This document shows positions 44,513 to 63,137 of a stretch of DNA of 64,000 nucleotides, piece after piece (the first letter of the stretch is position 1; the number at the start of each line of letters is the position of its first letter). A program made the translations under genes and the position numbers. Location of the stretch: assembly GCA_021799495.1 (NCBI GenBank), contig JAJZAI010000004.1, forward strand, positions 1 through 64,000, given 5' to 3'. The notes beneath the pieces were generated by a model, which had not been told where the DNA came from, ran no database searches, and saw only the letters and a program-made list of their open reading frames with translations. Source of the DNA: Deltaproteobacteria bacterium (GTDB lineage: Bacteria > Desulfobacterota > Binatia > Binatales > Binataceae).

Positions 44513-44965
44513 ATGGCTAAACAGAAGACGGCGGCTAACCGAAAGAAGTTCCTGGCCGACCTCCGCGAACATCTGCTCGAAATGAAGTCGAAGCTGCATG
44601 AAGAGATCGACTCCGAGCTCAAGGCCGAACGCGAAGGCGCCAAGGACGAGGGCATGGACACTTACGATCTCGCTTCCGAGGAGCGCGATCGCGAGATCAA
44701 TTTCATCCTCTCCGACCGCGAGCGGATGAAGGTCAAACAAATCGACGAAGCGCTTTCGCGGATCGAAGAGGGTGCCTACGGCGTGTGCGAATCCTGCGGC
44801 CTGGAAATCGCCGAGGAGCGGCTGAAGGCGATGCCGTTCACGCGGCTGTGCCGCGATTGCCAGCAGGATCAGGAGCGCGAGGCCCGCTCGCAGCGGCGCT
44901 TCGACGACGAGCGCAACACGTACCGCAAACTCGGTTCGACCGACGCGGACGAAGACAACCTCTAA
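44513..44965 (+). CDS. DksA/TraR-family zinc-finger transcription factor
   Basis: A 150-residue protein with a coiled-coil N-terminal half, an acidic tip region (GMDTYDLASEERDREINF) and a C4 zinc finger CESCG...CRDCQ. It resembles DksA/TraR proteins that bind the RNA polymerase secondary channel and modulate initiation with ppGpp. It is slightly shorter than the standard DksA, and the tip shows a D-x-x-x-D-style pattern. It sits 14 bases after rimO. Confidence 0.9.
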   Translation: MAKQKTAANRKKFLADLREHLLEMKSKLHEEIDSELKAEREGAKDEGMDTYDLASEERDREINFILSDRERMKVKQIDEALSRIEEGAYGVCESCGLEIAEERLKAMPFTRLCRDCQQDQEREARSQRRFDDERNTYRKLGSTDADEDNL

Positions 44966-45248: not shown

Positions 45249-46190
45249 ATGAGGATTTTCAGGGAACGCCGGGCTGACGCGGAATGCGATTCCCGCGCCG
45301 CGCGCGGAGCGGCCGCGCCGGGCGCCGGACTGACCGGCGTGCGGGCGGTGGTCGCGATCGCGAGCGCCAAGGGCGGCGTCGGCAAAAGCGCTATCGCGGT
45401 CAATCTGGCGGCGGCGCTGGCGCTGGCCGGCCACAAGGTGGGAATCCTCGACGCCGACCTGAATTCGCCGAACGTGCTGGCGATGCTGGGCTTGCAGGCG
45501 CCGCGGCGTGTCTTCGGCGGCGACGCGATCGAACCGATCGCGGGCCCGCTTGGACTGCGGATCGCGGCCAGCGGATTGCTGCCCGGCGGCGAGCCGCCCC
45601 CGGTCAGCTTTCTCGATGACGAAGCGGCGCACGCAGCGGCGAGCCGCAACGGTTCCGCGCTCGCCGAACTCGATTACGATGACGCGCTGCGCCGCTTGAT
45701 CGGCTTGACCAGTTTCGGCGCGCTGGACGTGCTCTTGATCGATCTCGCTCCCGGGCTCGAACAGCTTTTCCGCCTCGCGCGGATCGCGCCGCTCGCGGGC
45801 GCGATCATCGTGACCCAGCCGTCGGATTTCTCGGTGCGCGCAGCGCGCGGCGCGATCGAAATCGCGCGGCTGTGCGCCGTTCCCGTGCTCGGACTGGTCG
45901 AAAACATGGTCGGCTTCAGTTGCGAGGGATGCCATTCCGTGCGGCCGTTGCTGCCGCATGGCGATCTCGCCGCCGCGGCGGCCGCGGAGGAAGTTGCGAC
46001 GCTGGCGCGCCTGCCGTTCGATGCGCGGCTTGCGGAAAGCTGCGACCGCGGCGTGATTTTTATCCGCGCGTATGCGGAATCGCCGCTGGCGAAGAACTTT
46101 CACGAACTCGCGCGGCTGGTCGCGTTGAAGCTCAGCGCCGCCCTCGCGGCCGAATCGCATCAGCTTTCGGCGGCGGAAGAAGCCGGCTGA
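45249..46190 (+). CDS. Mrp/MinD-like P-loop ATPase lacking the DUF59 domain
   Basis: A 313-residue relative of Mrp. Deviant Walker A SAKGGVGKSA lies near residues 39-48. The switch region reads DLAPGLEQLFR where Mrp has DLPPGTGD. CEGC near residue 222 replaces the Mrp CxxC. There is no N-terminal MIP18-like domain; instead an Arg/Ala-rich leader of 30 residues. It may be a second iron-sulfur carrier or a regulatory paralogue. No Shine-Dalgarno is obvious before the ATG, so a later start is possible. Confidence 0.82.
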   Translation: MRIFRERRADAECDSRAARGAAAPGAGLTGVRAVVAIASAKGGVGKSAIAVNLAAALALAGHKVGILDADLNSPNVLAMLGLQAPRRVFGGDAIEPIAGPLGLRIAASGLLPGGEPPPVSFLDDEAAHAAASRNGSALAELDYDDALRRLIGLTSFGALDVLLIDLAPGLEQLFRLARIAPLAGAIIVTQPSDFSVRAARGAIEIARLCAVPVLGLVENMVGFSCEGCHSVRPLLPHGDLAAAAAAEEVATLARLPFDARLAESCDRGVIFIRAYAESPLAKNFHELARLVALKLSAALAAESHQLSAAEEAG

Positions 46191-46197
46191 AATCGCT

Positions 46198-47937
46198 TTA
46201 TCGAATCTGGCCAAAGGCGGCGTCAGGCTGGCCGACGACCCGCGAATATTCGAACATCCCGGCTCCGCTTTCTCCGCCAAGCCTGAACTCGGCGAAGCCG
46301 AGCGTCGTATGGATGCGTACGCCGTCCGCGCCGGGGCGCGAGAGCGACATGAAACTTCTGACCGCTCCGCTCAACTGCGATTCCGCGCCGCGCGGCGCGA
46401 CGATCGAAGCCGCGATGCGGTCGGGCGGCGCGGCGGGGTCGTGCGTCGTCAGTTCGATCGGGCCGACTTCCGCCGCTCGCCATCCGGTTTCGGTCAGGAT
46501 TCGCGCGTCGCGGCGATATGATCGATCCCCATTGGCGGTTTCGCACGCTTCGAGCACGGCGATCCGACGCCCCGAAGCAAAGCGCGCCCACAGCGTTCGC
46601 CGGGTTTCGAAGCGCCCCGCGCCCAAGCCGGTCACAGACACGCCGATGCGCGCGACGGCGCTGATTTTTCGCGGTTGTCCCGCGATTACAAGTTCGCCTT
46701 CCAGCCGTGCGAACCGCGGATCCGTCGCGGCGAGGTCCGGCGCCCGCGCGGCTTCTTCGAGCGCGAGCGCGGCGCGGAAGCGCATCGCGGGGTCGAGCGC
46801 GCCGCCGGCCAGCGCGCTTTCGACGCTCAGATAGGCCGCGCCGTCGTTCACGACTATCGCGGGACCGGCGAAGGCGAGACTGCCGGCGCCGCCGTCGCAG
46901 ACGAAGCGCAGCGGTCCAAGCGAGAGCGTTGCGCCGTCATGGTGCGGGCGTCCCTCGGCGGTGAAGAGCGCGGCGCGGCATCGATCGAACAGAATCATGA
47001 TCCGTCCGCCTGCCCCGCTCGCGCCGAGATCGAAGCTTGCGATTCCGCCAACGTTCGCGGCGGCGTCGAAGAATTCCACGCCGTACCGCGTCGGCGCGGC
47101 GGCGGATGGCGCGGCGGCCTGCGCGGGCCGCGGCGGGGATTCGCGGATTACGATGCGCGCGCCGGAAGTCCCGTTCGAGGTTTTCGATTCAGTGGCGGGA
47201 ACCGCGCCGTCGCCGGCCCGCGCGAAGCGAAATGATTCGGCGATCGCCGCGATTCCCCGCGCGCGCAACGGCCCGGGCATCCGCACCGCGACCGACATTT
47301 CCAGTTGAACCGCATCGACCGCGCCGTCCGCCGCGAGCGCGGCGAGCCGCCGCACAGCCGGAATGTCGCTGGCGTGATGGCGCGGGGTGAACGCTTGCAG
47401 CAGGTTCTGGCGCGCGCCGCCGGGATAGCGCATCCCGAAGGTCGCCGCGATGCCGGCGCGGTCAAGCCGCTCCGCCATCGCGGCTACGGGACCGCTGATG
47501 AAATCGTCGCTGGCGCTGACGTGGGCGCCGGCGGGCGGACGCAGATGCGCGCCGTGATCGCGCAGCCCGAGGCCGATATCAACCCGCGGCTCGATCACGT
47601 TCCAGCCGTGAATCAGCATCACGATCACGCGCCCGCGCCGGCGCGCGATATGTTCGACCCGGCCGGCGATCAATTCGATCATCCAGGGCGCGCGCGCCGC
47701 CAGTTGCCCGAGCCGGTTGCAATCCAGTTCATTGCGGTCCATCGCCGAATTGATCAGCGCGCAGGCGCCGAGCCTGCCGGCCAGCTCGCGCGCGATCGCG
47801 GCGGTCTCGAGGTCGTTTACTTTCGGATGGAGCGCGGCGCGCGCGGCCGCGCCGGCGCGTCCGCCGTGCGGCGCGATCAGCAGGATCGGCGCGGGTCCTT
47901 CGACGATTTCAAGCCATGCGGCGATCGTGGCGGACAT
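46198..47937 (-). CDS. N-formylglutamate amidohydrolase-like domain fused to a lipocalin-like (CrtC/AttH-type) domain
   Basis: A 579-residue fusion. Residues 1-240 resemble N-formylglutamate amidohydrolases: APHGGR at 22-27 and a NSAMDRNELDCNRLG region near 63-80 correspond to their metal-site motifs, followed by MLIHGWN and RHHASDI. A Pro/Ala linker (about 245-285) leads to a C-terminal beta-rich domain of about 290 residues ending GAGMFEYSRVV, typical of CrtC/AttH and DUF7064-like lipocalin folds. I do not know this combination from described enzymes. It is the last of eight minus-strand genes, 6 bases after pcs. Both assignments are from motifs only. Confidence 0.6.
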   Translation of the reverse strand: MSATIAAWLEIVEGPAPILLIAPHGGRAGAAARAALHPKVNDLETAAIARELAGRLGACALINSAMDRNELDCNRLGQLAARAPWMIELIAGRVEHIARRRGRVIVMLIHGWNVIEPRVDIGLGLRDHGAHLRPPAGAHVSASDDFISGPVAAMAERLDRAGIAATFGMRYPGGARQNLLQAFTPRHHASDIPAVRRLAALAADGAVDAVQLEMSVAVRMPGPLRARGIAAIAESFRFARAGDGAVPATESKTSNGTSGARIVIRESPPRPAQAAAPSAAAPTRYGVEFFDAAANVGGIASFDLGASGAGGRIMILFDRCRAALFTAEGRPHHDGATLSLGPLRFVCDGGAGSLAFAGPAIVVNDGAAYLSVESALAGGALDPAMRFRAALALEEAARAPDLAATDPRFARLEGELVIAGQPRKISAVARIGVSVTGLGAGRFETRRTLWARFASGRRIAVLEACETANGDRSYRRDARILTETGWRAAEVGPIELTTHDPAAPPDRIAASIVAPRGAESQLSGAVRSFMSLSRPGADGVRIHTTLGFAEFRLGGESGAGMFEYSRVVGQPDAAFGQIR

Positions 47938-47943
47938 CGCGGC

Positions 47944-48669
47944 CTAGCGCTGGCGGCGGGCGGCGACGCGCGCCGGATGAGCGTGAAGGGCGAATGACAT
48001 CGCGAAATAGTAAACGACGAAGGCCAGCGACGTGTAAAGCAGGAGATCGTTGTGCCCCGGCAGCATCGGCAGCATCGCGACGGTGGCGACGCCCCAGACC
48101 GCGGCGAGCGCGAGGGTCAGCGGACGCATCAGCTCGGTGCGGTTCGGATAAATGTACTTGATTGGAACGAACACCATCAGCGCCAGCGCGCCGACGATGG
48201 CGCCGTTGGCCGCGCGCGAAAATCCGAGGCAGAAAATATAGAGCGCGACCAGGTTCCAGTAAGACGGGAAGCCGCGGAAGTAGTTGTCCTCGGTCTTCGC
48301 GTCGGTCCGGCTGAAGCCGTACGCGCTCGCGATCATCACGAATGCGGCGAGCGTGGTTCCGGCGTTCCCCGCCGGCAGCAGATTCGCCCGCAGCATCAGG
48401 AAGGCGGGAACCGCGACGTAATTGAGATAGTCCACGATATTGTCGAGCGTCGCGCCGTCGAAGACGGGAATGCGTTCGCGCACGCGAAGCGCGCGCGCCA
48501 GTGGCCCGTCGAAGGAATCAATGGCGACCGCGATCGCCATCGCGATAAACGCGCCGCGCCAGTCCGCGCGCGTGGTGCGGTCGATCGCGATCAATCCCGC
48601 CGCCGCGCCCGACGCGGTCAGCAGATGAACGCCCCATGCGCATCCGCGGAGAATCCTTTGACTCGCCAT
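47944..48669 (-). CDS. pcs: Phosphatidylcholine synthase (CDP-alcohol phosphatidyltransferase)
   Basis: A 241-residue integral membrane protein with about eight helices. The CDP-alcohol motif DSFDGPLAR near residues 51-59, then FDGATLDNIVDYLNY, matches the Pcs form D-x2-DG-x2-AR...G-x3-D-x3-D with the extended spacing of choline-type enzymes. Pcs condenses CDP-diacylglycerol with choline to give phosphatidylcholine. A related phosphatidylserine or other headgroup synthase cannot be excluded. It lies 18 bases after the dual-specificity phosphatase and 6 before the fusion gene. Confidence 0.82.
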   Translation of the reverse strand: MASQRILRGCAWGVHLLTASGAAAGLIAIDRTTRADWRGAFIAMAIAVAIDSFDGPLARALRVRERIPVFDGATLDNIVDYLNYVAVPAFLMLRANLLPAGNAGTTLAAFVMIASAYGFSRTDAKTEDNYFRGFPSYWNLVALYIFCLGFSRAANGAIVGALALMVFVPIKYIYPNRTELMRPLTLALAAVWGVATVAMLPMLPGHNDLLLYTSLAFVVYYFAMSFALHAHPARVAARRQR

Positions 48670-48687
48670 CGGAGGCGCCGCGGCCGG

Positions 48688-49221
48688 CTATGCGGACGGC
48701 TTGAGATGGCGCGGGCCGAAATGATTTTCGAGCACGGTCATGAACGGCCCGCACGCGCGCCGCGCCTTGACCAGCGCCATCGCCTCTTCGAGCGACATCC
48801 CGCGATGGGCGCGCAAGTATGCGATCGCGAGCGTCGGCGCGCGGTTCAGTCCCGCATTGCAGTGGAGATATACGCGCCGCTCGCCCGCGACCAGGGTGTG
48901 CAAATCAGCCAGCGCGGCCACCAGCCTGCGCGCGACGTCGTCGGAACTGCCGTCGTGGATGGGAGTGCGCGCGTACGCGATTCCGTGTGAATCGGCGGCC
49001 GCTTCCAGTTCGCCGATATCGAGCGCGTTGATGCGCAAATCCTCGTCGTCCTGAAGATTGTGGATCGCGGTCACGCGATGCTCGCGCCTGAGCCATTCGA
49101 TATCGGCCACGCGCGGATATTCGCCGACCAGCAGATAGTCGGTGATTTCGCTCACCGACGGACGGATATCGCCGCGGGTCGGCCGGGGCCGGTCGTCGAA
49201 TCTTTGGGTCCACCAGTCCAT
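48688..49221 (-). CDS. Dual-specificity protein phosphatase family
   Basis: A 177-residue phosphatase with signature HCNAGLNRAP (Cys near residue 120) and an upstream HDGSSDD acid-loop. Proteins of this type dephosphorylate Tyr/Ser/Thr or phospholipids; the PTPMT1-type branch acts on phosphatidylglycerol phosphate. The context next to pcs and lipid genes makes a lipid phosphate a fair guess. The gene is 108 bases behind the phospholipase-like gene; TAGAAT at 49293-49298 (minus strand) could serve as an internal promoter. Confidence 0.8.
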   Translation of the reverse strand: MDWWTQRFDDRPRPTRGDIRPSVSEITDYLLVGEYPRVADIEWLRREHRVTAIHNLQDDEDLRINALDIGELEAAADSHGIAYARTPIHDGSSDDVARRLVAALADLHTLVAGERRVYLHCNAGLNRAPTLAIAYLRAHRGMSLEEAMALVKARRACGPFMTVLENHFGPRHLKPSA

Positions 49222-49329
49222 CAGCGTTCAAATTTCCAATCCGAGGCGGCGGCGCGATTCATGTTCACAACCGCTCCATCTCTCCAGTTGATATTCTAAC
49301 CATCGCCCGGCCGGTCCAGAAGCGCACGA

Positions 49330-50184
49330 TTATTGCGCACATGCGGGAGGTTGGCCGGCCTGCGTCCATTCGTATTGCCAGATCGATCCCAGCGTCGAAG
49401 CGGCGATCGCTATCTGCCGCGCGACCATCGGCGCCTCTTCGGCCATCAACACGCGATCGAAATAGGCGCCGCGCCGAAGTCCGGTTTCCGCGCGCGCCGC
49501 GCGGTCGGCGTTGATTACCGTCTGCACCAGCGGATGGCTCTCGTGCAGCTCCGCGATGGCCGCGTCCCACGGCGACGCGATCGGCGCGAGCCGGACTTCC
49601 GGGCGAGCCATCTGCTCGATGCGCCAGACGTTGTAATCGACCGCGCCTTCGAGGCGCGCATGGACGCCGCGATCCTGCGCGTAGCCGTCGAAGTGGGCGG
49701 TCGAATGGAGCGGCTGGGTCGCGTCGCCCACGTAATGCGCCAGGTAGCCCGCGGCCTGAATCGCATTCGCGCAATCGCCGCCGCGCCACGCGCTCGCGAG
49801 GTCGGCCGACTCTTCTTCGATCGCCCACGGCAAAACGCCCGATCGTTCCAGCGTGCGCCATCCGTACTCGCGTTCCATCACGCGAATATCGGGATTGAGC
49901 GCCGCGAAGGGATCGGCGCCGTAGTATTCGAGATCCAGATAGTGCTTGATCGCTTCGGACTTGCCGTAGAGAGGACGCAGGACTTCGTCGGGCGCGACGG
50001 AGGCCTCCTGCAGTTGCGCTGCGTTGGCCGCAAGCGTCGCGCGCGGGGATCCCGCGGGCAGCGCCTCGACCGCCAGCCGCGCGATCAAGCGATGCGTTCG
50101 CGAATCCCACGCGCGCACCGGCCGCGCGATCAAAACCGCCAGCGCCGTTACAGCGACAACCGTGATCGCGCGGGACATGATCAT
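49330..50184 (-). CDS. Zinc-dependent phospholipase C / S1-P1 nuclease-like secreted enzyme
   Basis: A 284-residue exported protein. A signal peptide ends RPVRA just before WDSRTHRLIA: the mature N-terminal Trp and the His are zinc ligands in this fold. GYLAHYVGDATQPLHST plus a later DGYAQDRGVHAR supply the remaining Asp/His ligands. Both phospholipase C and S1/P1 nucleases share this three-zinc all-helical fold and sequence alone does not separate them. It starts 18 bases behind the large fusion gene. The lipid setting favours phospholipase; ATGs at 50184 and 50178 are both possible starts. Confidence 0.8.
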   Translation of the reverse strand: MIMSRAITVVAVTALAVLIARPVRAWDSRTHRLIARLAVEALPAGSPRATLAANAAQLQEASVAPDEVLRPLYGKSEAIKHYLDLEYYGADPFAALNPDIRVMEREYGWRTLERSGVLPWAIEEESADLASAWRGGDCANAIQAAGYLAHYVGDATQPLHSTAHFDGYAQDRGVHARLEGAVDYNVWRIEQMARPEVRLAPIASPWDAAIAELHESHPLVQTVINADRAARAETGLRRGAYFDRVLMAEEAPMVARQIAIAASTLGSIWQYEWTQAGQPPACAQ

Positions 50185-50201
50185 GATGCGCCGCGCGCCG
50201 C

Positions 50202-53200
50202 TCAGCCTTTCGCGTGTCGCGCCGGACGGCGTCCGCGAGCGCGGACGCGCCCGCCGGGTTCGGCGGCTATTTCCGCCGCGGCGTCCGGCGCTGCAAGTAC
50301 GGGCGCTGCCGCCGGTTTGACACGTTTCATCGTGCGGACGCCGAGGCCGACGACCGCGTCGCGCATCCGCTCAGCAAGTTTGCGATAAGCTCCCGCGCCT
50401 TCGCCGTCGCGGGCGAGGCCGCGCAGTTCCTCCGCTCCGATCGGCCGGCCGATGCGCACTTCCACCGGATGACGCCGCGGCAGCAGCTGGCCCTTGCCGA
50501 GCACCTCGTGCGTGCCGTCGATTCTGATCGGCAGCACGTCGCATCCGCTATGCAGCGCAAGGTAGCCCGCGCCGCTCTTGAACTCGTGGATCAGGCCGTC
50601 GGGCGAGCGCGTGCCCTCGGGAAACATCAGCACGCTGCGGCCCGCCGCCAATTCCGCCAGCGCCTCGTCGAGCGATTCGAGCTGCGCGCGTTCGCGATCG
50701 AACGGAATCAGCCGCGAGAAATTCGCCGCGAGCATCCGCCGCGCCGGCGTGTTGAAGAAATAATCCTTGGCCGCGAGCACCACCAGATTGCGGCCCATCG
50801 CGCCCAGCGCGTGGCCGACCAGCGCGAAATCGAGATGGCTCGAATGGTTCGCCACGACCAGCGCGTTGCGGTTCGCCGGGATATTCCCGGCGCCCATCAC
50901 GAGCGGCTTCAGCCAGCGGTCGAACGCCGCGTCGAACGATCGCCGTAGCGCCGCCTCGCCCAGCCGCCGCAGCGGCTCCGGCAGTTCGATCGTGTACGGT
51001 TTCGCGAAGCGCGCGTAGGACGGCAGCTTCGGGCGATTGCCGGCCTCGCCCGCGATTCGCTGCAACTCCTCGACGGTCGCGACGTTCGACAGCTCCTCGG
51101 CGCTGAGCTCGCGGCCCGATTTTACGGCGATATGCTCCGCCAGTTCGGCCAGCGCCAGCGAATCCAGTCCGAGGTCTTCGATCAGCCGCGTCGCCGGCGT
51201 GATTTCCGCGCCGCCGCTGGCGACCTGCGCCAGCGCCTGCGCCAGCCACGGCTCGACCTCCGCGCTGACGGCGCCGCGCTCGCGCTCGTCGCTGTCCACC
51301 ATCCGGCGCAGCATCGCCGCGACCTCGGCGCGCCGCACCTTGCGCGTGCGCGTGCGCGGCAGCTCGGCGTCGGTGAAGCGCAGGATCCGGATGCGCTTGT
51401 GCGGACTCAGCGCCGCGCCGACCTTTTCGATATGCGCGCGCAGCTTGTCCTCGACGGCGCGCCGGCTTTCGCCGCGCGCGTACGCCGGCACGACCAGCGC
51501 CGCGACCTGCTCGCCCTGGCCGGCGCGCAATCCCACCACGGCCATCTCTTTCAGAAACGACGAGTGGCCGTAAGCCTCTTCGAGTTCGTCGATGTAGATA
51601 TTGTTGCCGCCAGAATCGACGATTACGTCCTTCGCCCGGCCGACGATATAGAGCCGCCCGTCTTCGTCGAAACGGCCGAGGTCGCCCGTATGCAGCCAGC
51701 CGTCGCGCAGCACTTCGGCGGTCGCTGCGGGATTGCGGTAATAGCCAGTCATCACGTTCGGCCCGCGCGCGATAATTTCGCCGACGCTGCCCGCGGCCTT
51801 GGCCAGTTTGACTTCGACGTTGTGCAGCGGCTTGCCGACCGATCCGGGAACCAGCGCTTCGTCAGGCCGCGCGACGCTCAGCACCGGCGCCGATTCGGTC
51901 AGGCCGTAGCCTTCGAGCAGGCGGATGCCGATTTCGTTGAAAAAACGCGCGACCCGCTGCGGCAGCGCCGCGCCGCCGCTCACCGCGAGCTTAAGCCGTC
52001 CTCCCAATGCGGTATGCGCCGGGCGGAACAGCAGCGTGCCGAGATTGAGGTTGTAATCTTCGTCGAGCCGGCGGTTCAGATCGCGCATCCGCTCGAACGC
52101 GGCGTGCGCGAACGGTCCGCGCGCCTCGACTTCGTCCATGATGCGCCGGTGCACGGCCTCCCAGAGCGCCGGCACTCCCACCAGCGCGGTCGGCCGCACG
52201 TCGGCCAGCGTGCGCGACAGGCTCGCCGCGTCCACGCCCTGCGGGTAAACGATCCGCGCGCCGCTCGCCAGCGGCAGCAGCATCCCGCAAGTGAACTCGA
52301 ACGTATGATGCAGCGGCAGCAGCGACAGCGCGACGTCGTCGGCGCCGAGCGCGAACACCCGCGCCAGCATCGCGATTTCGGCGGTGAAGTTGCCGTGCGT
52401 CAGCGTCACGCCCTTGGGCGCGCCGGTGGTGCCGGAGGTGAAGACGATCGACGCCGTCGATTTGCGCTCGAGCGCGGGCGGAGTCTTCGCCTTCGCGCTG
52501 AGGATGAACGGCCGGTTCAGCTCGTCCAGCTCGAGCTCGGCGATCCCGGGCGCCGCCGCGCCGATCGCCTCGCCCAGCCGCTTCGCGCATCCGGCGGAAA
52601 CCAGCGCGACGCTCGGCTCGGCGATTCGCGCGATCGGCGCCAGTTCCTCGGGCGCGATCAGATGGTCCAGCGGCACGGCGATCGCGCCGGCGTAGATAAT
52701 CGCGAAGTACGCGATCACCCATTCCGGCGAATTCTCCGCGATCAGCAGGACGCGATCGCCCGGTTCGACCCCGCGCGACGCCAGCATCAGGCCCGCCCGA
52801 TACGCGCGATCGCGCAGTTCGCGATAGCTCATGCCCGTGCGCTGGCCCGACGCCTGGCGCGCCTCGATCGCCGGCCGCGCGCCGTAGCGCTCGGCCGCCC
52901 GGTCGAGCATCTCGGCCAGCGTGCGGAAGCGGAAACCGCCCCGCGGCCGCGCCCGCGTATGCAGTTCGAGCTGCGGAAAAATATGCCGGCGCAGGCCCGG
53001 CAGATGAACGTTGATCCAGTAGTCGGCCCAATCGATGCGCTCGGGATGGAACGGATGGGCGCGCGCGTCGACCGGCTTAAGCTCCCGGTACAACTCGCGG
53101 ATATTGCGGCCGTGGAAGGTATAAACCAGGTCCTGGATATACGGCAGATATACTTCGACCAGCGACCGCGCCAGTTCCGTGTCGGCGACCAGCCGATCCG

Positions 53201-54620
53201 CGCGCTCGGCGATTTTGCGCGCCGCCGGCCGGCCGCCCATCACGGATTCCGCCGCCGCCGCCGCGCTCTTCAGCAGCGTCGGCAGCCGCTGGCTGACCAG
53301 TTCGTAGGTCTGATGCGAAACGATGACGGCTTCCAGATGGCGCGCGAGCTTGCCCATCGGGCCGCCCTGCCGGCGATGCTCCCGCCGATTGCCGAGGGCG
53401 GTCAATTCCACCAGCCGGCGCATCGGCAGCGGATTCACGTCCGACGTGCAGAGCTGGTAAATCGGCTGGTGCCGGCCGCGCAGCAGCGCGCCGAGAATCG
53501 GAACCATCGCGTGCGCGGCGAGATCGACCGGAATCACGTCGAGCACCAGGTCGCCCCGCGCCGGATAAAAGCGATAGCCGCGTCCCGACAGATAGGTCAG
53601 CGGCGCGCTGGTGTTGACGCCCTGGTTCCATCCGGGAATCGGATCGGCGAGCGCGCTTTCGATCACCGACGGCCGCGCCACCGCCACCGCGATCCGGTCG
53701 CGCGCCGCGAGCGCAATCTGCTCGCCAAGGCTCTTGGTGTAGCTGTAGGTGTTCGGCCAGCCCCACATCCGCGCGCGCCGCCGGCCAACTTCCTTGAGCC
53801 GTTCTTCGATCCATTGCTTGCGCCGCGCCTCGATCGCGCGCTCGCGGCTTTCGCCGTGGCCGCGCTCGTCGTCATCGTCGGCGGATTCCGCCTCCACCGC
53901 CATCCGGAACTGCGCCATCCGCGCCTGGTCCGCGGCTTCGGCTTCGACCCGCGCGATTTCGGCGCGCGCGTCGCGCAGCTCGCGCGCCAGCTCGAAGCCT
54001 CGCCGCCCGTTCGGGCGCCAGTCGATCGGGATGTCGTCCTCGTAGCGATGGCCGTCGGCGGCGCCTGCCGCGTAACAGGTCGAAACGTGCAGCAGGGCGG
54101 CGCCGCGCGCGCGGCAGAACGCGACCACGTTTTCGACGCCGGTGGCGTTGACTTCGAGCGCCTTGGCCAGCGACGCGTCGAAATTCACCAGGCCGGCGCA
54201 ATGGATGACGGCGTCGATATGCGCGCGTTCGAACGCCGGCGCTTCGTCGCTGAGCAGGCCCGGCTCCGCGATGTCGCCCGGCACGATCGCGATGCGCTCC
54301 TCGATATGGCGGTCGAAGCGGGCGCCCAGATGTTCGCGCAGGGGGCCGAGCGCGGGCGATTCGAAAATTTCCCGCCGGAAGCGGTTCTGGCTCGATTTGC
54401 GGTCGCCGCGAATCAGCAGATGCAGCCGCGCCAGCTCCGGATGATGCCGCAGGAGAATCGCGATCAGCACCTTGCCGAGAAAACCGGTCGCGCCCGTGAT
54501 CAGCAATTCCCGCCCGGCGAAAATTTCCGCGAGCGGCGCCATCGCGCCGTTCGGCGCGCGCGCGGATGCGCCGGCGCGGCGCGGGCTTGCGCCGGACGAA
54601 GCCCCGTTCTTATTCGACAT
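50202..54620 (-). CDS. Four-domain fusion: fatty acyl-CoA reductase / acyl-CoA ligase / acyl carrier / PlsC acyltransferase
   Basis: 1472 residues. Domain 1 (about 30-470) is a fatty-acyl-CoA-reductase-type NAD(P) domain: TGATGFLG near 40, STCYAAG and YSYTK (active-site Tyr and Lys) near 290; it has an Arg/Glu-rich insert around 210-270. Domain 2 (about 560-1060) is an adenylate-forming ligase with TSGTTGAPKG near 726 and GYGLTESAP, HTGDLGRF and KDVIVDSGGNNIY later. Domain 3 (about 1110-1185) is an acyl-carrier domain with phosphopantetheine Ser in GLDSLALAEL near 1150. Domain 4 (about 1220-1440) is PlsC: NHSSHLDF near 1256 and FPEGTRS near 1335. The tail is Arg/Ala rich. It probably activates, reduces and esterifies fatty acyl chains. 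Overlaps the LarA-like gene by 11 bases. Confidence 0.88.
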   Translation of the reverse strand: MSNKNGASSGASPRRAGASARAPNGAMAPLAEIFAGRELLITGATGFLGKVLIAILLRHHPELARLHLLIRGDRKSSQNRFRREIFESPALGPLREHLGARFDRHIEERIAIVPGDIAEPGLLSDEAPAFERAHIDAVIHCAGLVNFDASLAKALEVNATGVENVVAFCRARGAALLHVSTCYAAGAADGHRYEDDIPIDWRPNGRRGFELARELRDARAEIARVEAEAADQARMAQFRMAVEAESADDDDERGHGESRERAIEARRKQWIEERLKEVGRRRARMWGWPNTYSYTKSLGEQIALAARDRIAVAVARPSVIESALADPIPGWNQGVNTSAPLTYLSGRGYRFYPARGDLVLDVIPVDLAAHAMVPILGALLRGRHQPIYQLCTSDVNPLPMRRLVELTALGNRREHRRQGGPMGKLARHLEAVIVSHQTYELVSQRLPTLLKSAAAAAESVMGGRPAARKIAERADRLVADTELARSLVEVYLPYIQDLVYTFHGRNIRELYRELKPVDARAHPFHPERIDWADYWINVHLPGLRRHIFPQLELHTRARPRGGFRFRTLAEMLDRAAERYGARPAIEARQASGQRTGMSYRELRDRAYRAGLMLASRGVEPGDRVLLIAENSPEWVIAYFAIIYAGAIAVPLDHLIAPEELAPIARIAEPSVALVSAGCAKRLGEAIGAAAPGIAELELDELNRPFILSAKAKTPPALERKSTASIVFTSGTTGAPKGVTLTHGNFTAEIAMLARVFALGADDVALSLLPLHHTFEFTCGMLLPLASGARIVYPQGVDAASLSRTLADVRPTALVGVPALWEAVHRRIMDEVEARGPFAHAAFERMRDLNRRLDEDYNLNLGTLLFRPAHTALGGRLKLAVSGGAALPQRVARFFNEIGIRLLEGYGLTESAPVLSVARPDEALVPGSVGKPLHNVEVKLAKAAGSVGEIIARGPNVMTGYYRNPAATAEVLRDGWLHTGDLGRFDEDGRLYIVGRAKDVIVDSGGNNIYIDELEEAYGHSSFLKEMAVVGLRAGQGEQVAALVVPAYARGESRRAVEDKLRAHIEKVGAALSPHKRIRILRFTDAELPRTRTRKVRRAEVAAMLRRMVDSDERERGAVSAEVEPWLAQALAQVASGGAEITPATRLIEDLGLDSLALAELAEHIAVKSGRELSAEELSNVATVEELQRIAGEAGNRPKLPSYARFAKPYTIELPEPLRRLGEAALRRSFDAAFDRWLKPLVMGAGNIPANRNALVVANHSSHLDFALVGHALGAMGRNLVVLAAKDYFFNTPARRMLAANFSRLIPFDRERAQLESLDEALAELAAGRSVLMFPEGTRSPDGLIHEFKSGAGYLALHSGCDVLPIRIDGTHEVLGKGQLLPRRHPVEVRIGRPIGAEELRGLARDGEGAGAYRKLAERMRDAVVGLGVRTMKRVKPAAAPVLAAPDAAAEIAAEPGGRVRARGRRPARHAKG

Positions 54621-56250
54621 CGGCGATCACCAGCGGCGGCAAGTGCAGATAGGTAATTGTCGCCGACCGTCCATGCTCCGACGTGGCCATCGCGATCGCC
54701 TCGTCGAGCGTGTCCGCGGACTCCCATCCCAGCCGTGCGGCGACCTCCGGCTCCTGGCATCCGGCCGCGATCACCCGCCCCACGTGCTGGCGCGCGGGCT
54801 CGCCCCAATACCACATGTAGAACGGATGCACGCCGTGATAGGCGTGCCCGTAGCGGTACATGTGAATATAGGTCGGGTTGCGCGCGAACTCGGCTTCGAA
54901 CCGCTTTTCCAGTTCGACCGAGTCGGTCGTCTCGGCCAGGCATCGATGGAAAAATTCGATGTAGCTCGGATGATGCTCCGGATGAAATTCGTCGCGCAGC
55001 GGATGGCAGATAATCATCGTGCCGCCGGGTTTCACCAGCGGCTTGTTGCGGTACATGTTGAACAGGTAGCCCATCCCGGTGCACTGCACGAGAACGGGAT
55101 TCATGATCGAATTGACATTGTAGGGACAGACATAAGGCACGCCGACGATCAGCACGTCGGATTGTCCCTTCACCGGCACCGCGTATTGCTGGAACACCCG
55201 CGCCAGCGCCTGCCGATGCACGGTTTCGGTCTCGCCCGCCCATACCCCCGTCATTCCGTATGGCGCCGCGTACTGATTCATCACCTGGCGGCGCAATTCG
55301 TTCGACATTCCGCCGAGCGTCCAGCGGAAGCCCTTCAGCCGCATCCGATCCCAATCGCTGAAGCGATCTTCGTTCTTTTGCAGGAAGTCGAGCATCCCGC
55401 CGTACATCTGGGTATTCACGGCGGTCTCGATCGAAAATACATTCACTTCGCGATTGACTATCCGGCCCATCCGGTTGGCCGAACTGTGCAGCGCCGAGCG
55501 GGTCGGGTCCATGTATGAATGGCTGTCGCGAAGCGTGGCGGGATTATGATGGTGGCGCAGGCTTTGATAGGGCGCGAGTCCGACGGCGACCGATTTATGT
55601 CCGCCGTCCATCGGCACCAGGTTGATATTCAGGTAAATCAGCAGGTCCGATTCAGCCGCGCGCCGCGACAGCCACACTTCCTCGCCATGCTCGGTCTTGC
55701 CGAGCATCGCGAGTTCCGACCGATCCTCGCCGTCGAAGTTGTAGAGCCGTTCCGGCCAGAACTGCCGGAACGCGCGCTCGCCCACCATCCGGCGGATCTC
55801 CGCTTCGGTCATCCGGCGATGGAGCGCGGTGGCGACGATCAGATGAACGTCATCGACGCCGTAATCCGCCAGCGTCTGCAGCACCTGGTTGAGCAGCCGC
55901 TCGCGGATATCCGGCCGGCGCATCGGCGGCAGCGGCAGGCTGATGTCGTCGATCGCGATCGTCACGCGCATGTTCGGATTGAGCTGCGCGAACAGCGGAT
56001 CGGCGTTGAGCGGATGGAGCAGGGCGTAGCGGATCGCGGTGTCCGGATCGGGCAGCGCGTCGAGCGGCGGCGGCGGATAGACGACGCGCGTTCCCGCCGG
56101 CAGCTTTTCGTACAGAAACTCGTCGCCGTAGGCGATTAGCCGCGGCTCGGAGCGGCGGCTGAGCGTCACCACGAGATCGCGCCGCGACCCCACCTCGCGC
56201 TTCAGGTCCGCCGGCTTGAGTTCCTTGAGTTTCGCTTCAGGCCGCGCCAT
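54610..56250 (-). CDS. LarA-like (lactate racemase family, DUF2088) protein
   Basis: A 546-residue protein of the LarA family, longer than typical LarA (about 425). ATALHRRMTEAEIRRMVGE matches the catalytic-His segment and GGHKSVAVG has a lysine at 219 where LarA attaches its nickel-pincer nucleotide. These suggest an NPN-dependent racemase or epimerase, here with lipid genes on both sides. No larB, larC or larE is in the window to make the cofactor. It overlaps the HAD gene by 14 bases and the fusion gene by 11. The substrate is unknown; an acyl or glycerol hydroxy-acid is a guess. Confidence 0.75.
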   Translation of the reverse strand: MARPEAKLKELKPADLKREVGSRRDLVVTLSRRSEPRLIAYGDEFLYEKLPAGTRVVYPPPPLDALPDPDTAIRYALLHPLNADPLFAQLNPNMRVTIAIDDISLPLPPMRRPDIRERLLNQVLQTLADYGVDDVHLIVATALHRRMTEAEIRRMVGERAFRQFWPERLYNFDGEDRSELAMLGKTEHGEEVWLSRRAAESDLLIYLNINLVPMDGGHKSVAVGLAPYQSLRHHHNPATLRDSHSYMDPTRSALHSSANRMGRIVNREVNVFSIETAVNTQMYGGMLDFLQKNEDRFSDWDRMRLKGFRWTLGGMSNELRRQVMNQYAAPYGMTGVWAGETETVHRQALARVFQQYAVPVKGQSDVLIVGVPYVCPYNVNSIMNPVLVQCTGMGYLFNMYRNKPLVKPGGTMIICHPLRDEFHPEHHPSYIEFFHRCLAETTDSVELEKRFEAEFARNPTYIHMYRYGHAYHGVHPFYMWYWGEPARQHVGRVIAAGCQEPEVAARLGWESADTLDEAIAMATSEHGRSATITYLHLPPLVIADVE

Positions 56251-57061
56251 TAAGTTTTCTCTCCAGCCATTCGCCGACCGCGGCGCGGTCGATTCCGCCG
56301 AGTGTGCGCCGCTCTTCGCCCTTGTCGAAGCGAAGCAACGGCCACTGGCGCGCCGCCGCGGTCGCGGCCAGGCGCCGGTCGGGATTGACGGCGACCGGAT
56401 GCCCCATCACGGCCAGAAATGGCAAGTCGTAATGAGAATCCGCGTAGCCCCAGCAATCGGCAAGGCCGATACCGAGGCGCGCGCAATACTCCGCGCACCA
56501 TTCCGCTTTGGCGTCGCCAGCCATCACCGGCGCGTGTAGGCGTCCCGTGGCCCGTCCGCGGCTGAAAACCAGCCGGTTCGCGACCCACGACTTGATACCG
56601 AGCCGCTCGGCGAACGGCGCGATGATAAAGTCCGGCGAGCCCGTCACCAGCACCGGTTCGAGCCCGGCGCCGCGGTTGGCTTCAATGAGTTCGGCGGCGC
56701 GCGGATAGAGATGGCCGATCATCACGCGGTCGCAATATTCCTCGCCCAGCGAAAACAGGCGATCGCGGGAGACGCCCTTGAAGGCCTCGAACAGCGCGAT
56801 ATTGAGCAGATAGCGATCGCGGCGCTCCGCCAGATAAAGCGACGGCAGCCGCGCGGCGAAACTTGCCAGATAGCCGATTCGGCCGCTCCATTCGCCGATA
56901 TTGCCGAAAACGAAAATCGCCGAATGGAGCAGATTCAAATCGATTAGGGTGCCGTCAACGTCGTAGAACGCGAGCGCGCGACGCGGATGCGTTTTGCCAT
57001 TGGCGGTTACGGCGGCGCGCCGCCGGCTCTGCGTTCGGCCGTCGCCTTTGAAAACTGACAT
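56237..57061 (-). CDS. HAD superfamily IB hydrolase (SerB/PSPase-like phosphatase)
   Basis: A 274-residue phosphatase. The nucleophile motif is FYDVDGT with Asp at 34 and 36; VTGSPDFIIAPFAERLG is the second motif; GDAKAEWC then YADSHYDLPFL completes the HAD core. A basic, 30-residue N-terminal leader precedes it. HAD-IB proteins of this kind often neighbour fatty acyl reductase or PlsC acyltransferase genes. It starts one base after the TetR stop and ends inside the LarA-like gene start (overlap 14 bases). Its role in lipid chemistry, for example removing a phosphate from a lysolipid, is inference. Confidence 0.85.
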   Translation of the reverse strand: MSVFKGDGRTQSRRRAAVTANGKTHPRRALAFYDVDGTLIDLNLLHSAIFVFGNIGEWSGRIGYLASFAARLPSLYLAERRDRYLLNIALFEAFKGVSRDRLFSLGEEYCDRVMIGHLYPRAAELIEANRGAGLEPVLVTGSPDFIIAPFAERLGIKSWVANRLVFSRGRATGRLHAPVMAGDAKAEWCAEYCARLGIGLADCWGYADSHYDLPFLAVMGHPVAVNPDRRLAATAAARQWPLLRFDKGEERRTLGGIDRAAVGEWLERKLNGAA

Positions 57062-57062
57062 G

Positions 57063-57755
57063 TCAGTCTAATTTCGGACGAAAAAAATGTCCCGCCTCCG
57101 CCGCCGTCTCCGCGCCGGCCGCGGTCGGTTGACAACCCCCCGCCGCCGGTTCCTTGACGACCGTTTGAAGCAGTTCCGGACGGGCGACGCCGCGCAGCCC
57201 GAAATCAAGGATCTCTTCCGCCAGGGCGGCGACGTCGTCGCGCTGGCTTCGCGATAGTTGGCCGACGATTTCCTTGATGCCGCCCAGGATGCAATAGGCG
57301 ACCGCGCGCGTGTCGCATTCCCGCACCAGGCTCATCTCGATGCCGAGATCGAGCGACCGCTGGATCTGATCCGTAACGCGTTCGTAAAAATCCACAATTT
57401 GCTCGTCAAGTCCCCGATCGAAACCGGTCGAATGGTTGAGCAGAATGTCCGTCAATTCGCGTTCGTCGAGCACGAAGGCGAGCACTCGCCGCAGATTGGC
57501 GCGCAATTGCTCGGCGGGATTCGGCTGGCCGGGGCCAACCCGCAGGCGCTGAATCCGTTCGCGCAGCTCGCGCAGCGTTTGCGCCAGCAGCTCTTCGAAA
57601 ATGTCGCGCTTGTTCTGAAAATAGAGATAAAAGGTTCCGCGCGCGATCCGCGCCCGCGAAATGATGTCGGCGATGTTTGTGCGATGGTATCCCTTGCGCG
57701 CGAAGATGTGCTTCGCGTGATGCAATACCTGCTCGCGCCTGGCTTGCCGTTCCAT
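57063..57755 (-). CDS. TetR/AcrR-family transcriptional regulator
   Basis: About 230 residues. The N-terminal helix-turn-helix is HHAKHIFARKGYHRTNIADIISRARIARGTFYLYFQNKRDIFEELL, the classic TetR DNA-binding domain. A long all-helical ligand domain follows and a Pro/Glu-rich C-terminal tail. It leads the eight-gene operon and probably regulates it in response to a lipid or acyl ligand. I chose ATG at 57755; a GTG at 57776 would add seven residues. A palindrome at 57803-57811 just upstream could be its operator. Confidence 0.88.
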   Translation of the reverse strand: MERQARREQVLHHAKHIFARKGYHRTNIADIISRARIARGTFYLYFQNKRDIFEELLAQTLRELRERIQRLRVGPGQPNPAEQLRANLRRVLAFVLDERELTDILLNHSTGFDRGLDEQIVDFYERVTDQIQRSLDLGIEMSLVRECDTRAVAYCILGGIKEIVGQLSRSQRDDVAALAEEILDFGLRGVARPELLQTVVKEPAAGGCQPTAAGAETAAEAGHFFRPKLD

Positions 57756-57802
57756 CGTTGCCGCAGTGGCCGACACTATCGGCGGCGGTACGTGGAGTCA
57801 AA

Positions 57803-58962: not shown

Positions 58963-59211
58963 ATGGCCGTAAATCCTCGGCAAATCCCTTTCCAAACGGA
59001 CCTTTACGGCCGGGGCCATCGGCAATGCGCGGACCGAATCGAATTTGCGCCAGCGTGGAACACGCCGCATCCGCGCGGGTGGATTGCGTTCAATCCCCTA
59101 TGGTATGCCGACAATGCGCGTCGGCCCTTCTATGCGATTGTCGCGCAGCCGGACCGGAAAGGAGGACGCTCTCTGGCGGAGCGTCGTGAAAAAATCCAGT
59201 GGCATTACTAG
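58963..59211 (+). CDS. Possible small protein, 82 residues
   Basis: An open frame from ATG with codon choice like real genes here (GCG, CGC, CGG, GAC frequent) and a protein-like composition rich in Trp, Tyr and Phe (WIAFNPLWYADNARRPFYAIVAQ). It has no match I know. Its stop overlaps the GTG start of the DUF748 gene by 13 bases, which would couple their translation. The start lacks a good Shine-Dalgarno. The other frames of this stretch are not convincing. Confidence 0.4.
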   Translation: MAVNPRQIPFQTDLYGRGHRQCADRIEFAPAWNTPHPRGWIAFNPLWYADNARRPFYAIVAQPDRKGGRSLAERREKIQWHY

Positions 59212-62200: not shown

Positions 62201-63137
62201 CGAGCTGCCCGATCTTTCCGCCTATTCGGCCAAATACACGGGCTATCCGATTACCCAGGGCACGCTGACCGTCGATGTGCATTACCTGCTCGACCAGCGC
62301 AAGCTGACCGCGCAGAACCATATCCGGATCGATCAGCTCACTTTCGGCGACAAGGTTCCGCAGCCGAGCGTTTACAACCTGCCGGTGCGGCTGGCGGTCG
62401 CGATTCTGAAGGATCCGCAGGGCCGGATCGATCTGAACATTCCTGTTTCCGGGTCGCTCAACGATCCGGAATTCAGCCTTGGCAGCGTCATCTGGTACGC
62501 CTTCAAGAATTTGATCATGAAGGCGATTACTTCGCCCTTCAAACTCCTGGCGGCGGCGCTGCCGGGCGGTGGCGGCGGCGGCGAGGGATTGTCGTACGTC
62601 GGGTTCAAGCCGGGCTTTGCGCGGCTGAACGCGGACGATCGCAAGAAACTCAATCAGGTCGCGGCGGCGCTCAAACAGCGGTCCGCCCTGAAGCTCGACA
62701 TCACCGGCGTGGTCGATCCGTCGCTGGACAAACCGGGCCTGCGGGAGGCCAAGGTCGATTACCTGGTGCGCAAGCGCAAGGCCGCGGATAGCGGGCAGGA
62801 GAATGCGAATCTCGACGATCTCCAGATTACGGCCGGCGAATACGACAAGTACCTCAAGCAGGTGTACAAGGCTGCGGATATTCCCGACAAGCCGCGCGAC
62901 TTTCTCGGGATGGCGAAATCGCTGCCGCCGGCCGAGATGGAAAAGCTGTTGGTCGACAATACCAAAGTATCCGACGCCGATTTGCCCAAGCTGGGGCGGG
63001 CGCGCGCCGAAGCGGTGCGCACCTTTTTGATGACGCGGATCGATCCGGGGCGGCTGATCGTTTCGCCGGCGAAGATCGTTGCGGGCACGCCCGGCGGCGG
63101 CGAACCGCCGGCCCGCGCGGATCTTTCGCTTGAGTAA
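59199..63137 (+). CDS. AsmA-like DUF748 domain protein, very large
   Basis: A 1312-residue inner-membrane-anchored, periplasm-spanning protein. One N-terminal transmembrane segment (residues about 27-47), then repeated AsmA/DUF748-type beta segments (VAKSLKRQVSVGEIAFNPYSLRLEIGQLEVA). Two low-complexity inserts interrupt it: Ala/Pro-rich at about 353-435 and Arg/His-rich at about 635-670. The C-terminal part (FARLNADDRKKLNQVAAALKQ...) resembles OmpA-like ends of DUF748 proteins. AsmA-like proteins are thought to carry phospholipids between the membranes, which fits the adjacent lipid operon. The start is a GTG. Confidence 0.85.
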   Translation: MALLETFRRALEKAKRLPKSRRVRRWTIGIAAALAIYTGFGFFGVPAILPHVLAGSVAKSLKRQVSVGEIAFNPYSLRLEIGQLEVARRSGGGAFVEIGHLGVEASWNSLWRLAPVVEEVVITNPTINIVRTAPNTFNFSDLIPPPKPAPAAPQPGKPFRFSVSNIQISGGAVNFDDQVLGQRHTIQDLRLDVPFIANLPAYVKVYVKPYVAMSVDGSKLSMAGTARPFGAEPESELVLNLRSLEISKYLDYVPRKLPITMPHGALSTYLLIHFAQSVQGPQIRIGGRVRLDQLDVRDQSGQPLVGFNQLLVTLNNVEPLHNYVHLAAIKLDGLKANLTLNADGTTNFSRLASSGGAPPPAANVQSAPAPAAPYGATSSTAPSAAAAAPTPAAASTPSPAAPNPSLVQAAPAAPSGAPAPPAQAAAPAAPGKPALDLQVAAIDVTNGAVNLQDNQMPAPVNTAMQAIAAHVSDFHLGAGAPIPYSFGATLSGGGTIAAKGSLDLAGSAATTQLTLSQIDVPALQGFAQSILAGKIVAGKVNASANVKANYAPGKFNLHVEPAQASLDGFEIQLPERGQQPIRWTSIGAQLAMADLQAHQAAVDRLSTDGISVEVVRDRRGRLNLGSLLKSSQTKPREARRGHPHPRRARARRRPERRRATKKPAAPTAKAPQWQFQIKTIAFDKTAIALRDETERPELRAAIAPLDIDLKNVTSDFAKPFGVAIGATVNRRGTLKITGDAAIKPLKANLHIVTRRLDLTPANAVLGSRMNAVIARAMLSSSGAVRVAQERRAMRIGYRGDVTLGDVRMLDKLTRDLFARWRALRFERIDFAMGEGKPRVHLGAIAFDDFYARIILNRDGKLNLSDIMANPQAAPTSLTRAHGTVAAPAPSPTPTPTPQAAGAGQQAPPAPPKPLPADIRIGQITLAGGEANYTDNFIRPNYSADLTDLAGKIGEFSTESTTPADVSLNGMVNRNAPVSISGAVSPLAPMAYLDITAKANGIELPDLSAYSAKYTGYPITQGTLTVDVHYLLDQRKLTAQNHIRIDQLTFGDKVPQPSVYNLPVRLAVAILKDPQGRIDLNIPVSGSLNDPEFSLGSVIWYAFKNLIMKAITSPFKLLAAALPGGGGGGEGLSYVGFKPGFARLNADDRKKLNQVAAALKQRSALKLDITGVVDPSLDKPGLREAKVDYLVRKRKAADSGQENANLDDLQITAGEYDKYLKQVYKAADIPDKPRDFLGMAKSLPPAEMEKLLVDNTKVSDADLPKLGRARAEAVRTFLMTRIDPGRLIVSPAKIVAGTPGGGEPPARADLSLE

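What the first reader, a model, noticed from the sequence alone, without database searches (positions are those of the whole stretch)
46198..57776. Eight-gene minus-strand operon that looks like an uncharacterised membrane-lipid pathway
Seen: eight consecutive minus-strand genes with gaps of -14 to 108 bases, several overlapping, from a TetR regulator to a lipocalin-tailed hydrolase. Known families: HAD-IB phosphatase, acyl-CoA reductase, acyl-CoA ligase, acyl carrier, PlsC acyltransferase, phospholipase C fold, PTP-type phosphatase and CDP-alcohol phosphatidyltransferase all act in lipid chemistry. Inference: the locus makes and remodels an unusual phospholipid, for example an alkyl (fatty-alcohol-derived) ether or ester lipid with a choline head. 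The multifunctional ElbD of myxobacterial ether-lipid formation is a possible precedent, but I do not recall its domain order well enough to assert homology.
Basis: partly seen in the sequence, partly recalled or inferred. Interest (0 to 1): 0.85.

Follow-up and report, generated by a model that had tools for sequence, protein, structure and literature searches.

The report
Ether-lipid operon with nickel-type enzyme
This gene row in an uncultured soil bacterium (Binataceae) is a variant of the myxobacterial ether-lipid gene cluster, extended with a gene for putting choline on the lipid, and its one 'unknown' core protein turns out to belong to the nickel-cofactor lactate-racemase family, which suggests a testable answer to how these bacteria make ether lipids.

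Summary
The eight-gene minus-strand operon is real. Its first half is an elb-type ether-lipid cluster. The second half (Zn-phospholipase-C fold, dual-specificity phosphatase, phosphatidylcholine synthase, N-formylglutamate-amidohydrolase/tandem-lipocalin fusion) was found only in Binataceae. The Pcs gene has the Pcs-type motif and is the genome's only Pcs homologue. The new point concerns ElbC, called 'of unknown function' in 2022: it is a nickel-pincer (LarA-superfamily) protein. All 78 homologues keep the cofactor-tethering Lys, the Ni-ligand His, the ribose Asp and one catalytic His. All 78 lack the second catalytic His, and have an aliphatic residue where racemases have the Arg/Lys that binds cofactor phosphate and substrate carboxylate. 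I infer a hydride-transfer step other than ordinary hydroxy-acid racemisation. The ether product, the choline headgroup and the ElbC reaction are inferred, not shown. Verdict: new variant of a known kind, with a testable lead on an open biochemical step.

The parts
57773..57801 (-). conserved promoter: -35 TTGACT (57801-57796), 17-nt spacer, -10 TAGTGT (57778-57773), about 20 nt before the TetR ATG
   Evidence: TTGAC[A/T] conserved upstream of tetR in all 11 aligned Binataceae loci, with TA[G/C]NNT about 17 nt later where the region is complete; missed by the simple consensus scan
57063..57755 (-). TetR-family regulator (FadR-like, TetR_C_24); first gene of the operon; start corrected from GTG 57776 to ATG 57755
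   Evidence: Pfam TetR_N 1.7e-14, TetR_C_24 2.5e-07; present in every Binataceae locus that reaches far enough upstream
56237..57061 (-). elbB homologue: HAD-IB phosphatase, DVDGT motif
   Evidence: TIGR01490 106.9 bits, over its 98.3 cut-off; 38.5% identity over 218 aa to the M. vastator elbB; adjacent upstream of elbC in 48 of 59 non-Binataceae loci
54610..56250 (-). elbC homologue: LarA-superfamily (nickel-pincer nucleotide type) protein lacking the second catalytic His; D102, H144, K219, H235 kept
   Evidence: NF052592 843.8 bits; 53% identity to Myxococcus elbC; AF2 pTM 0.87, best fold matches 9q3k/9q3j; residues in 78 homologues
50202..54620 (-). elbD homologue, 1472 aa: fatty acyl reductase - acyl-CoA/ACP ligase - ACP - PlsC acyltransferase
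   Evidence: Pfam order; 39% identity over 1470 alignment positions to the M. vastator ElbD, co-linear, E=0
53505..54500 (-). ElbD FAR domain (NAD_binding_4), GATGFLG and YSYTK motifs intact
51339..52907 (-). ElbD acyl-adenylating (ACS) domain, TSGTTGAPKG intact
51063..51248 (-). ElbD acyl carrier domain, GLDSL serine intact
50520..50900 (-). ElbD PlsC-type acyltransferase domain, NHSSHLD and FPEGTRS intact
49330..50184 (-). probably exported Zn-dependent phospholipase C / S1-P1 nuclease fold protein (signal-peptide-like start; mature N-terminal Trp predicted)
   Evidence: PF00882 1.2e-9, PF02265 1.3e-7; HYVGDATQPLH zinc-site motif; Binataceae only, absent in L008, L011, L012
48688..49221 (-). 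dual-specificity (PTP-fold) phosphatase, HCNAGLNR
   Evidence: PF00782 4.3e-15; closest solved relatives are phosphoglucan phosphatases LSF2/SEX4, substrate undecided
47944..48669 (-). phosphatidylcholine synthase (Pcs)-type CDP-alcohol phosphatidyltransferase
   Evidence: NF045886 203 bits, below the 440 cut-off; motif DX2DGX2ARX12GX3DX3D in 8 of 8 copies; only Pcs homologue in the genome
46198..47937 (-). fusion: N-formylglutamate-amidohydrolase-like domain (47218-47937) + tandem-lipocalin domain (46240-47094)
   Evidence: AF2 model pLDDT 71; Foldseek: 25-phosphosteroid lyase 9g4c 5.4e-8, kievitone hydratase 7a0t 7.3e-7, N-formylglutamate amidohydrolase 2q7s 5.4e-4

Best explanation
This is an elb-type operon that builds a glycerophospholipid with a reduced, most likely alkyl-ether, chain. 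In Binataceae it is extended for a choline headgroup. ElbD activates a fatty acid and loads it on its own carrier domain (shown for the M. xanthus enzyme). Its reductase domain then reduces the chain (inferred) and its PlsC domain acylates the second glycerol position (inferred). ElbC, with the HAD phosphatase ElbB, supplies a step between the reduced chain and the glycerol backbone: ElbC carries the nickel-pincer nucleotide and performs a hydride transfer that is not a standard alpha-hydroxy-acid racemisation (inferred from the conserved cofactor residues, the missing second histidine and the missing carboxylate-binding Arg/Lys). After activation to the CDP-lipid by a general enzyme elsewhere, Pcs joins it to choline (inferred). 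The exported PLC-fold protein, the PTP-fold phosphatase and the amidohydrolase-lipocalin fusion trim or recycle the lipid or its headgroup (weakest part). TetR controls one promoter for the whole set (inferred).
For: Order and homology elbB-C-D against the published elbA-E operon, in which elbD mutants lose ether lipids and purified ElbD shows ACS and ACP activity (PMC9131029). The elbB insertion was only partly rescued by elbD (PMC9131029), which leaves room for a role of ElbB and/or ElbC. All ElbD catalytic motifs are intact. ElbC: NF052592 above its cut-off both here and in 56 of 97 Myxococcota genomes; fold and closest solved relatives are nickel-pincer enzymes with a single catalytic His; D72, H108, K184 and H200 equivalents 78/78, second His 0/78, Arg75/Lys76 position L/V/M 78/78. 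LarB, LarC and LarE are all in the genome, and in Myxococcota all 57 ElbC genomes have LarB against 19 of 40 others. Pcs motif and uniqueness. Shared promoter. No CarF/PEDS1 in this genome, so an alkyl rather than a vinyl ether if any.
Against: No biochemistry or lipid data exist for this organism. elbE, which matters in M. xanthus, is not in the window, and its presence elsewhere in the genome was not tested. ElbD homologues occur in bacteria without detected ether lipids (PMC11868695). LarB is near-universal in this class even in genomes without any LarA homologue, so LarB/C/E presence does not single out ElbC there. In 14 of 46 non-Binataceae loci with enough downstream sequence, the reductase domain of ElbD is not next to elbC. 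The Pcs score is below NCBI's equivalog cut-offs.
Confidence: 0.6

Rival explanations
1. The elb-type core makes a reduced-chain product that is not an ether: a fatty alcohol ester (wax-like) or an aldehyde-derived lipid. The Pcs and hydrolase genes remodel ordinary phospholipids in the same operon.
For: FAR and PlsC domains would suffice for a fatty alcohol plus esterification; ElbD homologues occur in bacteria without detected ether lipids (PMC11868695); in M. xanthus the FAR and acyltransferase activities were never shown (PMC9131029).
Against: In M. xanthus elbD loss strongly reduces alkyl and vinyl ether lipids and is complemented (PMC9131029), and elbB-C-D here is a full-length, same-order homologue. 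An NPN-type enzyme has no evident role in wax ester synthesis.
Confidence: 0.2
2. ElbC is an ordinary hydroxy-acid isomerase that, with the HAD phosphatase, supplies a stereochemically correct small precursor (for example a glycerate-type backbone), and has no part in ether bond chemistry.
For: NCBI names the family 'NPN-dependent hydroxyacid isomerase'. HAD-ElbC is the most conserved pair (48 of 59 loci) and sometimes stands without an adjacent ElbD, as a precursor-supplying pair would.
Against: The second catalytic His and the carboxylate/phosphate-binding Arg/Lys of known racemases are absent in 78/78 homologues. A member of group 14 (Frankia) showed none of seven hydroxy-acid isomerase activities (PMC7583248).
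Confidence: 0.25
3. ElbC has lost the cofactor and works without nickel, as a binding or structural protein of the ElbD complex.
For: Loss of two LarA active-site residues; LarB/C/E presence is not diagnostic in this class.
Against: The covalent-tether Lys, the Ni-ligand His, the ribose Asp and the catalytic His are invariant in 78 sequences from several phyla. The closest solved relatives include a cofactor-loaded enzyme with the same missing His (PMC12611868). LarB accompanies ElbC in 57/57 Myxococcota genomes.
Confidence: 0.15
4. Two unrelated functions share one transcript: an elb module and a separate Binataceae phosphatidylcholine-turnover module.
For: The modules have different phyletic ranges, and the downstream trio is missing in L013 and L014 while the elb core stays.
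Against: Tight spacing, one conserved promoter, and a conserved site in the window and six relatives.
Confidence: 0.3

Closest known systems
elbA-elbE operon of Myxococcus xanthus (ether lipid biosynthesis; MIBiG BGC0000871 per PMC9426513)
   Same: elbB (HAD), elbC (LarA family) and elbD (FAR-ACS-ACP-AT) in the same order, full-length homologues
   Different: No elbA or elbE in the window; a TetR gene leads the operon; PLC, DSP, Pcs and the amidohydrolase-lipocalin gene follow elbD; no CarF in the genome
[quoted passage not shown] PDB 9q2u, 9q3j, 9q3k; PMC12611868)
   Same: Best sequence and fold matches; Lys tether, Ni-ligand His, ribose Asp and one catalytic His kept; second catalytic His absent; Tyr307 and His401 equivalents kept
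   Different: About 20% identity; Lys76 is an aliphatic residue and His306 a Pro in all 78 ElbC homologues; lipid gene context instead of sugar metabolism
NCBIfam NF052592 LarAH14/15/16
   Same: The window protein and 56 of 97 Myxococcota genomes score over the cut-off
   Different: The family name asserts hydroxy-acid isomerisation; the tested member (LarAH14, Frankia) showed none of seven activities (PMC7583248)
Bacterial phosphatidylcholine synthase (Pcs)
   Same: CDP-OH-PT motif with the Pcs-type 12-residue spacing; five Pcs models are the best hits
   Different: Scores are about half of the equivalog cut-offs or less; located in an elb operon
Sponge-symbiont 'ether-lipid-associated' NRPS-like clusters (PMC9426513)
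   Same: elbD-type core gene with FAR, ACS, T and AT domains, flanked by hydrolases and oxidoreductases
   Different: Other phyla (Acidobacteriota, Poribacteria); no Pcs module described in the passages read

Membership tests
elb ether-lipid cluster | multidomain ElbD with order FAR-ACS-ACP-acyltransferase | tested here: met
   domain order; 39% identity to M. vastator ElbD over full length, motifs intact
elb ether-lipid cluster | elbB (HAD) and elbC directly upstream, same strand | tested here: met
elb ether-lipid cluster | elbE (NAD-dependent epimerase-like) downstream of elbD | tested here: not met
   no elbA/elbE homologue in the 64-kb window at E<=1e-3; rest of the genome not searched. 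In myxobacteria themselves elbD/elbE can be unlinked from elbB/elbC (PMC9131029)
elb ether-lipid cluster | product is an alkyl/vinyl ether lipid | not testable with these tools
   needs lipid mass spectrometry
LarA superfamily (NPN-dependent) | LarA fold and family score | tested here: met
   NF052592 843.8 bits; Foldseek 9q3k E 9.9e-31, TM 0.83 by target
LarA superfamily (NPN-dependent) | cofactor residues: Lys184 tether, His200 Ni ligand, Asp72 | tested here: met
   K219, H235, D102 in 78/78
LarA superfamily (NPN-dependent) | cofactor synthesis genes larB, larC, larE in the genome | tested here: met
   not discriminating in this class
LarA hydroxy-acid racemase/epimerase (function) | two catalytic histidines and the Arg/Lys that binds NPN phosphate and substrate carboxylate | tested here: not met
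   second His absent in 78/78, Arg/Lys position L/V/M in 78/78
Phosphatidylcholine synthase | CDP-OH-PT motif with Pcs-type spacing DX2DGX2ARX12G... | tested here: met
   8/8 copies; motif from PMC3972451, which prints GX3GX3D at the end where these proteins have GX3DX3D
Phosphatidylcholine synthase | NCBI equivalog score | tested here: not met
   203 bits against 440; the five best hits are all Pcs models
Aerobic plasmalogen pathway | CarF/PEDS1 desaturase (PF10520) | tested here: not met
   no match in the genome
AGPS-type ether-lipid pathway | alkylglycerone-phosphate synthase in the genome | not tested
N-formylglutamate amidohydrolase (gene 8 N-terminal domain) | fold match | tested here: inconclusive
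   2q7s E 5.4e-4, prob 1.00, on a model of pLDDT 71; no Pfam hit

The most novel reading that the evidence does not exclude
ElbC is a nickel-pincer nucleotide enzyme that carries out the missing chemical step of the ElbD ether-lipid pathway: a hydride transfer that turns a fatty aldehyde/hemiacetal (or an ester) into the ether-linked chain, for example a redox-neutral shift giving an alkyl-glycerone that ElbE-type reductases then reduce. To my knowledge this would be the first NPN reaction that is not a hydroxy-acid isomerisation, and a nickel-dependent, AGPS-independent route to ether lipids. The specific aldehyde/hemiacetal chemistry is my speculation; the residue pattern and gene context only show that it is not excluded.
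Probability: 0.22. Interest if true: 0.88.

Novelty: new variant of a known kind. Interest (0 to 1): 0.62.

Why it matters
How bacteria of the ElbD type form the ether bond is an acknowledged open question: the steps from fatty acid to alkyl ether lipid are called unknown in PMC9131029. Identifying elbC as a nickel-pincer-family gene links that question to a second one, what single-histidine LarA homologues do (PMC12611868), and makes both testable with gene deletions in a laboratory myxobacterium. Ether lipids of soil bacteria also matter as climate-proxy biomarkers, and Binataceae would be a further candidate producer, with a choline headgroup.

Tried and rejected
Cofactor synthesis as proof: larB, larC and larE are all present, but a class-wide control showed LarB over its cut-off in 72 of 78 Binatia genomes while only 42 of 78 have any LarA homologue, so I use it only as permissive evidence. 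Myxococcota co-occurrence (57/57 ElbC genomes with LarB against 19/40; p about 1e-10) falls to p about 0.004 when genomes under about 4 Mb are left out, and is confounded by shared ancestry. The DSP's best solved relatives are plant phosphoglucan phosphatases; I reject this as a substrate assignment because the fold is widespread. The PLC-fold protein's solved relatives are only marginal (E about 0.009), so phospholipase against nuclease activity is undecided. A simple sigma-70 scan found no promoter; comparison of relatives did. Vinyl-ether (plasmalogen) product rejected for this genome because PF10520 is absent. The position of the missing second His could not be aligned to a single residue (N210 or V212, depending on the template), so I state only that no His occurs in residues 204-217.
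Full report
Observation. The eight ORFs, their strand and their spacing are as described; recomputed gaps run from -14 to +108. The operon is bounded upstream by a promoter conserved among relatives (TTGAC[A/T]-N17-TA[G/C]NNT at 57801-57773) and downstream by a convergent ParA-like gene (45249-46190). The TetR start moves from GTG 57776 to ATG 57755, because the conserved coding start is ATGGAACG and the longer reading would overlap the -10 box. In six relatives (L002, L004, L006, L008, L011, L012) the locus ends at the same ParA-like flank, five of them also with the DksA gene.

Where it comes from. The nearest loci are MAGs labelled Deltaproteobacteria, Proteobacteria or Candidatus Binataceae. 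ElbC-like LarA proteins were found in 11 of 12 sampled genomes of the window's family. The matches in other families of the class are mostly distant LarA types, judged by score pattern only, except one unresolved case, G192.

Identity of the core. Gene 4 has the domain order FAR-ACS-ACP-PlsC with all catalytic motifs intact. A genome-wide search with gene 3 brought in Myxococcus, Corallococcus, Archangium, Polyangiaceae, Acidobacteria, Planctomycetota and one cyanobacterial MAG. In Myxococcus vastator the order is epimerase (elbA) - HAD (elbB) - LarA family (elbC) - ElbD - epimerase (elbE), which is the published elbA-E operon in which elbC was listed as of unknown function (PMC9131029). Window against M. 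vastator: HAD 38.5% over 218 aa, ElbC 53%, ElbD 39% over 1470 positions. Among non-Binataceae loci the HAD gene lies directly upstream of elbC in 48 of 59, and the ElbD reductase domain within 1.5 kb downstream in 32 of 46. Genes 2-4 are therefore elbB-C-D.

ElbC is a nickel-pincer-family protein. NF052592 matches at 843.8 bits (cut-off 740), and 56 of 97 Myxococcota genomes also pass. Its closest solved relatives by sequence and by AlphaFold/Foldseek are the LarA-like NPN enzymes with one catalytic histidine (9q2u, 9q3j, 9q3k). Using the residue roles given in PMC12611868 and PMC7583248, an alignment of 78 homologues gives: ribose Asp D102 78/78, catalytic His H144 78/78, covalent-tether Lys K219 78/78, Ni-ligand His H235 78/78; no His between residues 204 and 217 in any sequence; and at the position of Arg75/Lys76, which binds the NPN phosphate and the substrate carboxylate, an aliphatic residue in all 78. 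So cofactor binding looks kept while the racemase machinery is not. The 2020 LarA study suggested that homologues lacking H174 may catalyse another hydride-mediated reaction (PMC7583248), and its group-14 member showed none of seven hydroxy-acid activities. I found no paper that links elbC to LarA, but the library holds only open-licence papers, so absence there is weak evidence.

Cofactor supply. LarC, LarE and LarB are in the genome above their cut-offs, and gene 3 is its only LarA homologue. The control weakens this: LarB is near-universal in the class, with or without a LarA homologue.

The Binataceae extension. Genes 5-8 were detected only in Binataceae. Gene 7 carries DX2DGX2ARX12GX3DX3D in 8 of 8 copies, the Pcs-type spacing described in PMC3972451; its five best specific models are all Pcs, and it is the only Pcs homologue in the genome. 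Gene 5 has the zinc-site motif of the PLC/S1-P1 fold. Gene 6 is an intact PTP-fold phosphatase. PLC is missing in L008, L011 and L012, and the DSP-Pcs-gene 8 trio is missing in L013 and L014, so this half is an accessory module.

Mechanism. Shown elsewhere: ACS and ACP activity of M. xanthus ElbD, and strong reduction of ether lipids without it (PMC9131029). Shown here: homology, gene order, motif integrity, conserved cofactor residues, a single conserved promoter. Inferred: chain reduction, the ElbC/ElbB step, acylation at the second position, choline transfer by Pcs, and lipid trimming by genes 5, 6 and 8. CarF is absent, so any ether would be alkyl. The ElbC step is the weakest link and the most interesting one. 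The published observation that elbB disruption was only partly rescued by elbD (PMC9131029) is compatible with a need for ElbB and/or ElbC, though it was read there as polarity.

Evolution. In an ElbC tree the Binataceae sequences form one well-supported group (100/100) separate from the main myxobacterial and acidobacterial clades. One long branch joins nearby, so the deeper placement is unsure.

Verdict. A real operon: an elb-type cluster in a lineage where I know of no report of it, extended by a Pcs module. It is a new variant of a known kind. The general value lies in recognising elbC as an NPN-family gene with a non-racemase active site.

Noticed in passing
G151, G152, G162, G172, G177 (other Binatia families): PF10520 (CarF/PEDS1 plasmalogen desaturase family) matches at E 1e-42 to 1e-53 in five Binatia genomes outside Binataceae, while PMC9131029 reports true CarF homologues beyond myxobacteria only in Leptospira. 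Orthology to CarF was not checked.
   Followed up: no
L020, L029, L039, L054, L081, L016 and others: elbC (usually with elbB) occurs without an adjacent ElbD reductase domain in 14 of 46 loci with enough downstream sequence, so HAD and ElbC may act as a unit of their own.
   Followed up: partly
class-wide LarB against LarA: LarB is near-universal in Binatia (72 of 78 over cut-off) although only 42 of 78 have any recognised LarA homologue: either an unrecognised NPN enzyme exists or LarB has another role.
   Followed up: partly
L002:18331-20044 and L011:16833-18685: Gene 8 is split into two frames in two relatives, by an assembly error or by real decay.
   Followed up: no
L042 (record titled Comamonas sp. 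KCTC 72670): The elb locus in a record labelled Comamonas is nearly identical to Myxococcus; the record is probably mislabelled.
   Followed up: no
window 45249-46190 and 44513-44965: A ParA/MinD-like ATPase next to a DksA-type gene forms the conserved convergent neighbour of the operon.
   Followed up: partly
window 59199-63137: A 1312-aa plus-strand ORF upstream of the operon, looking like an AsmA/DUF748-type envelope protein by eye; its homologue sits upstream of tetR in L002 and L017.
   Followed up: no
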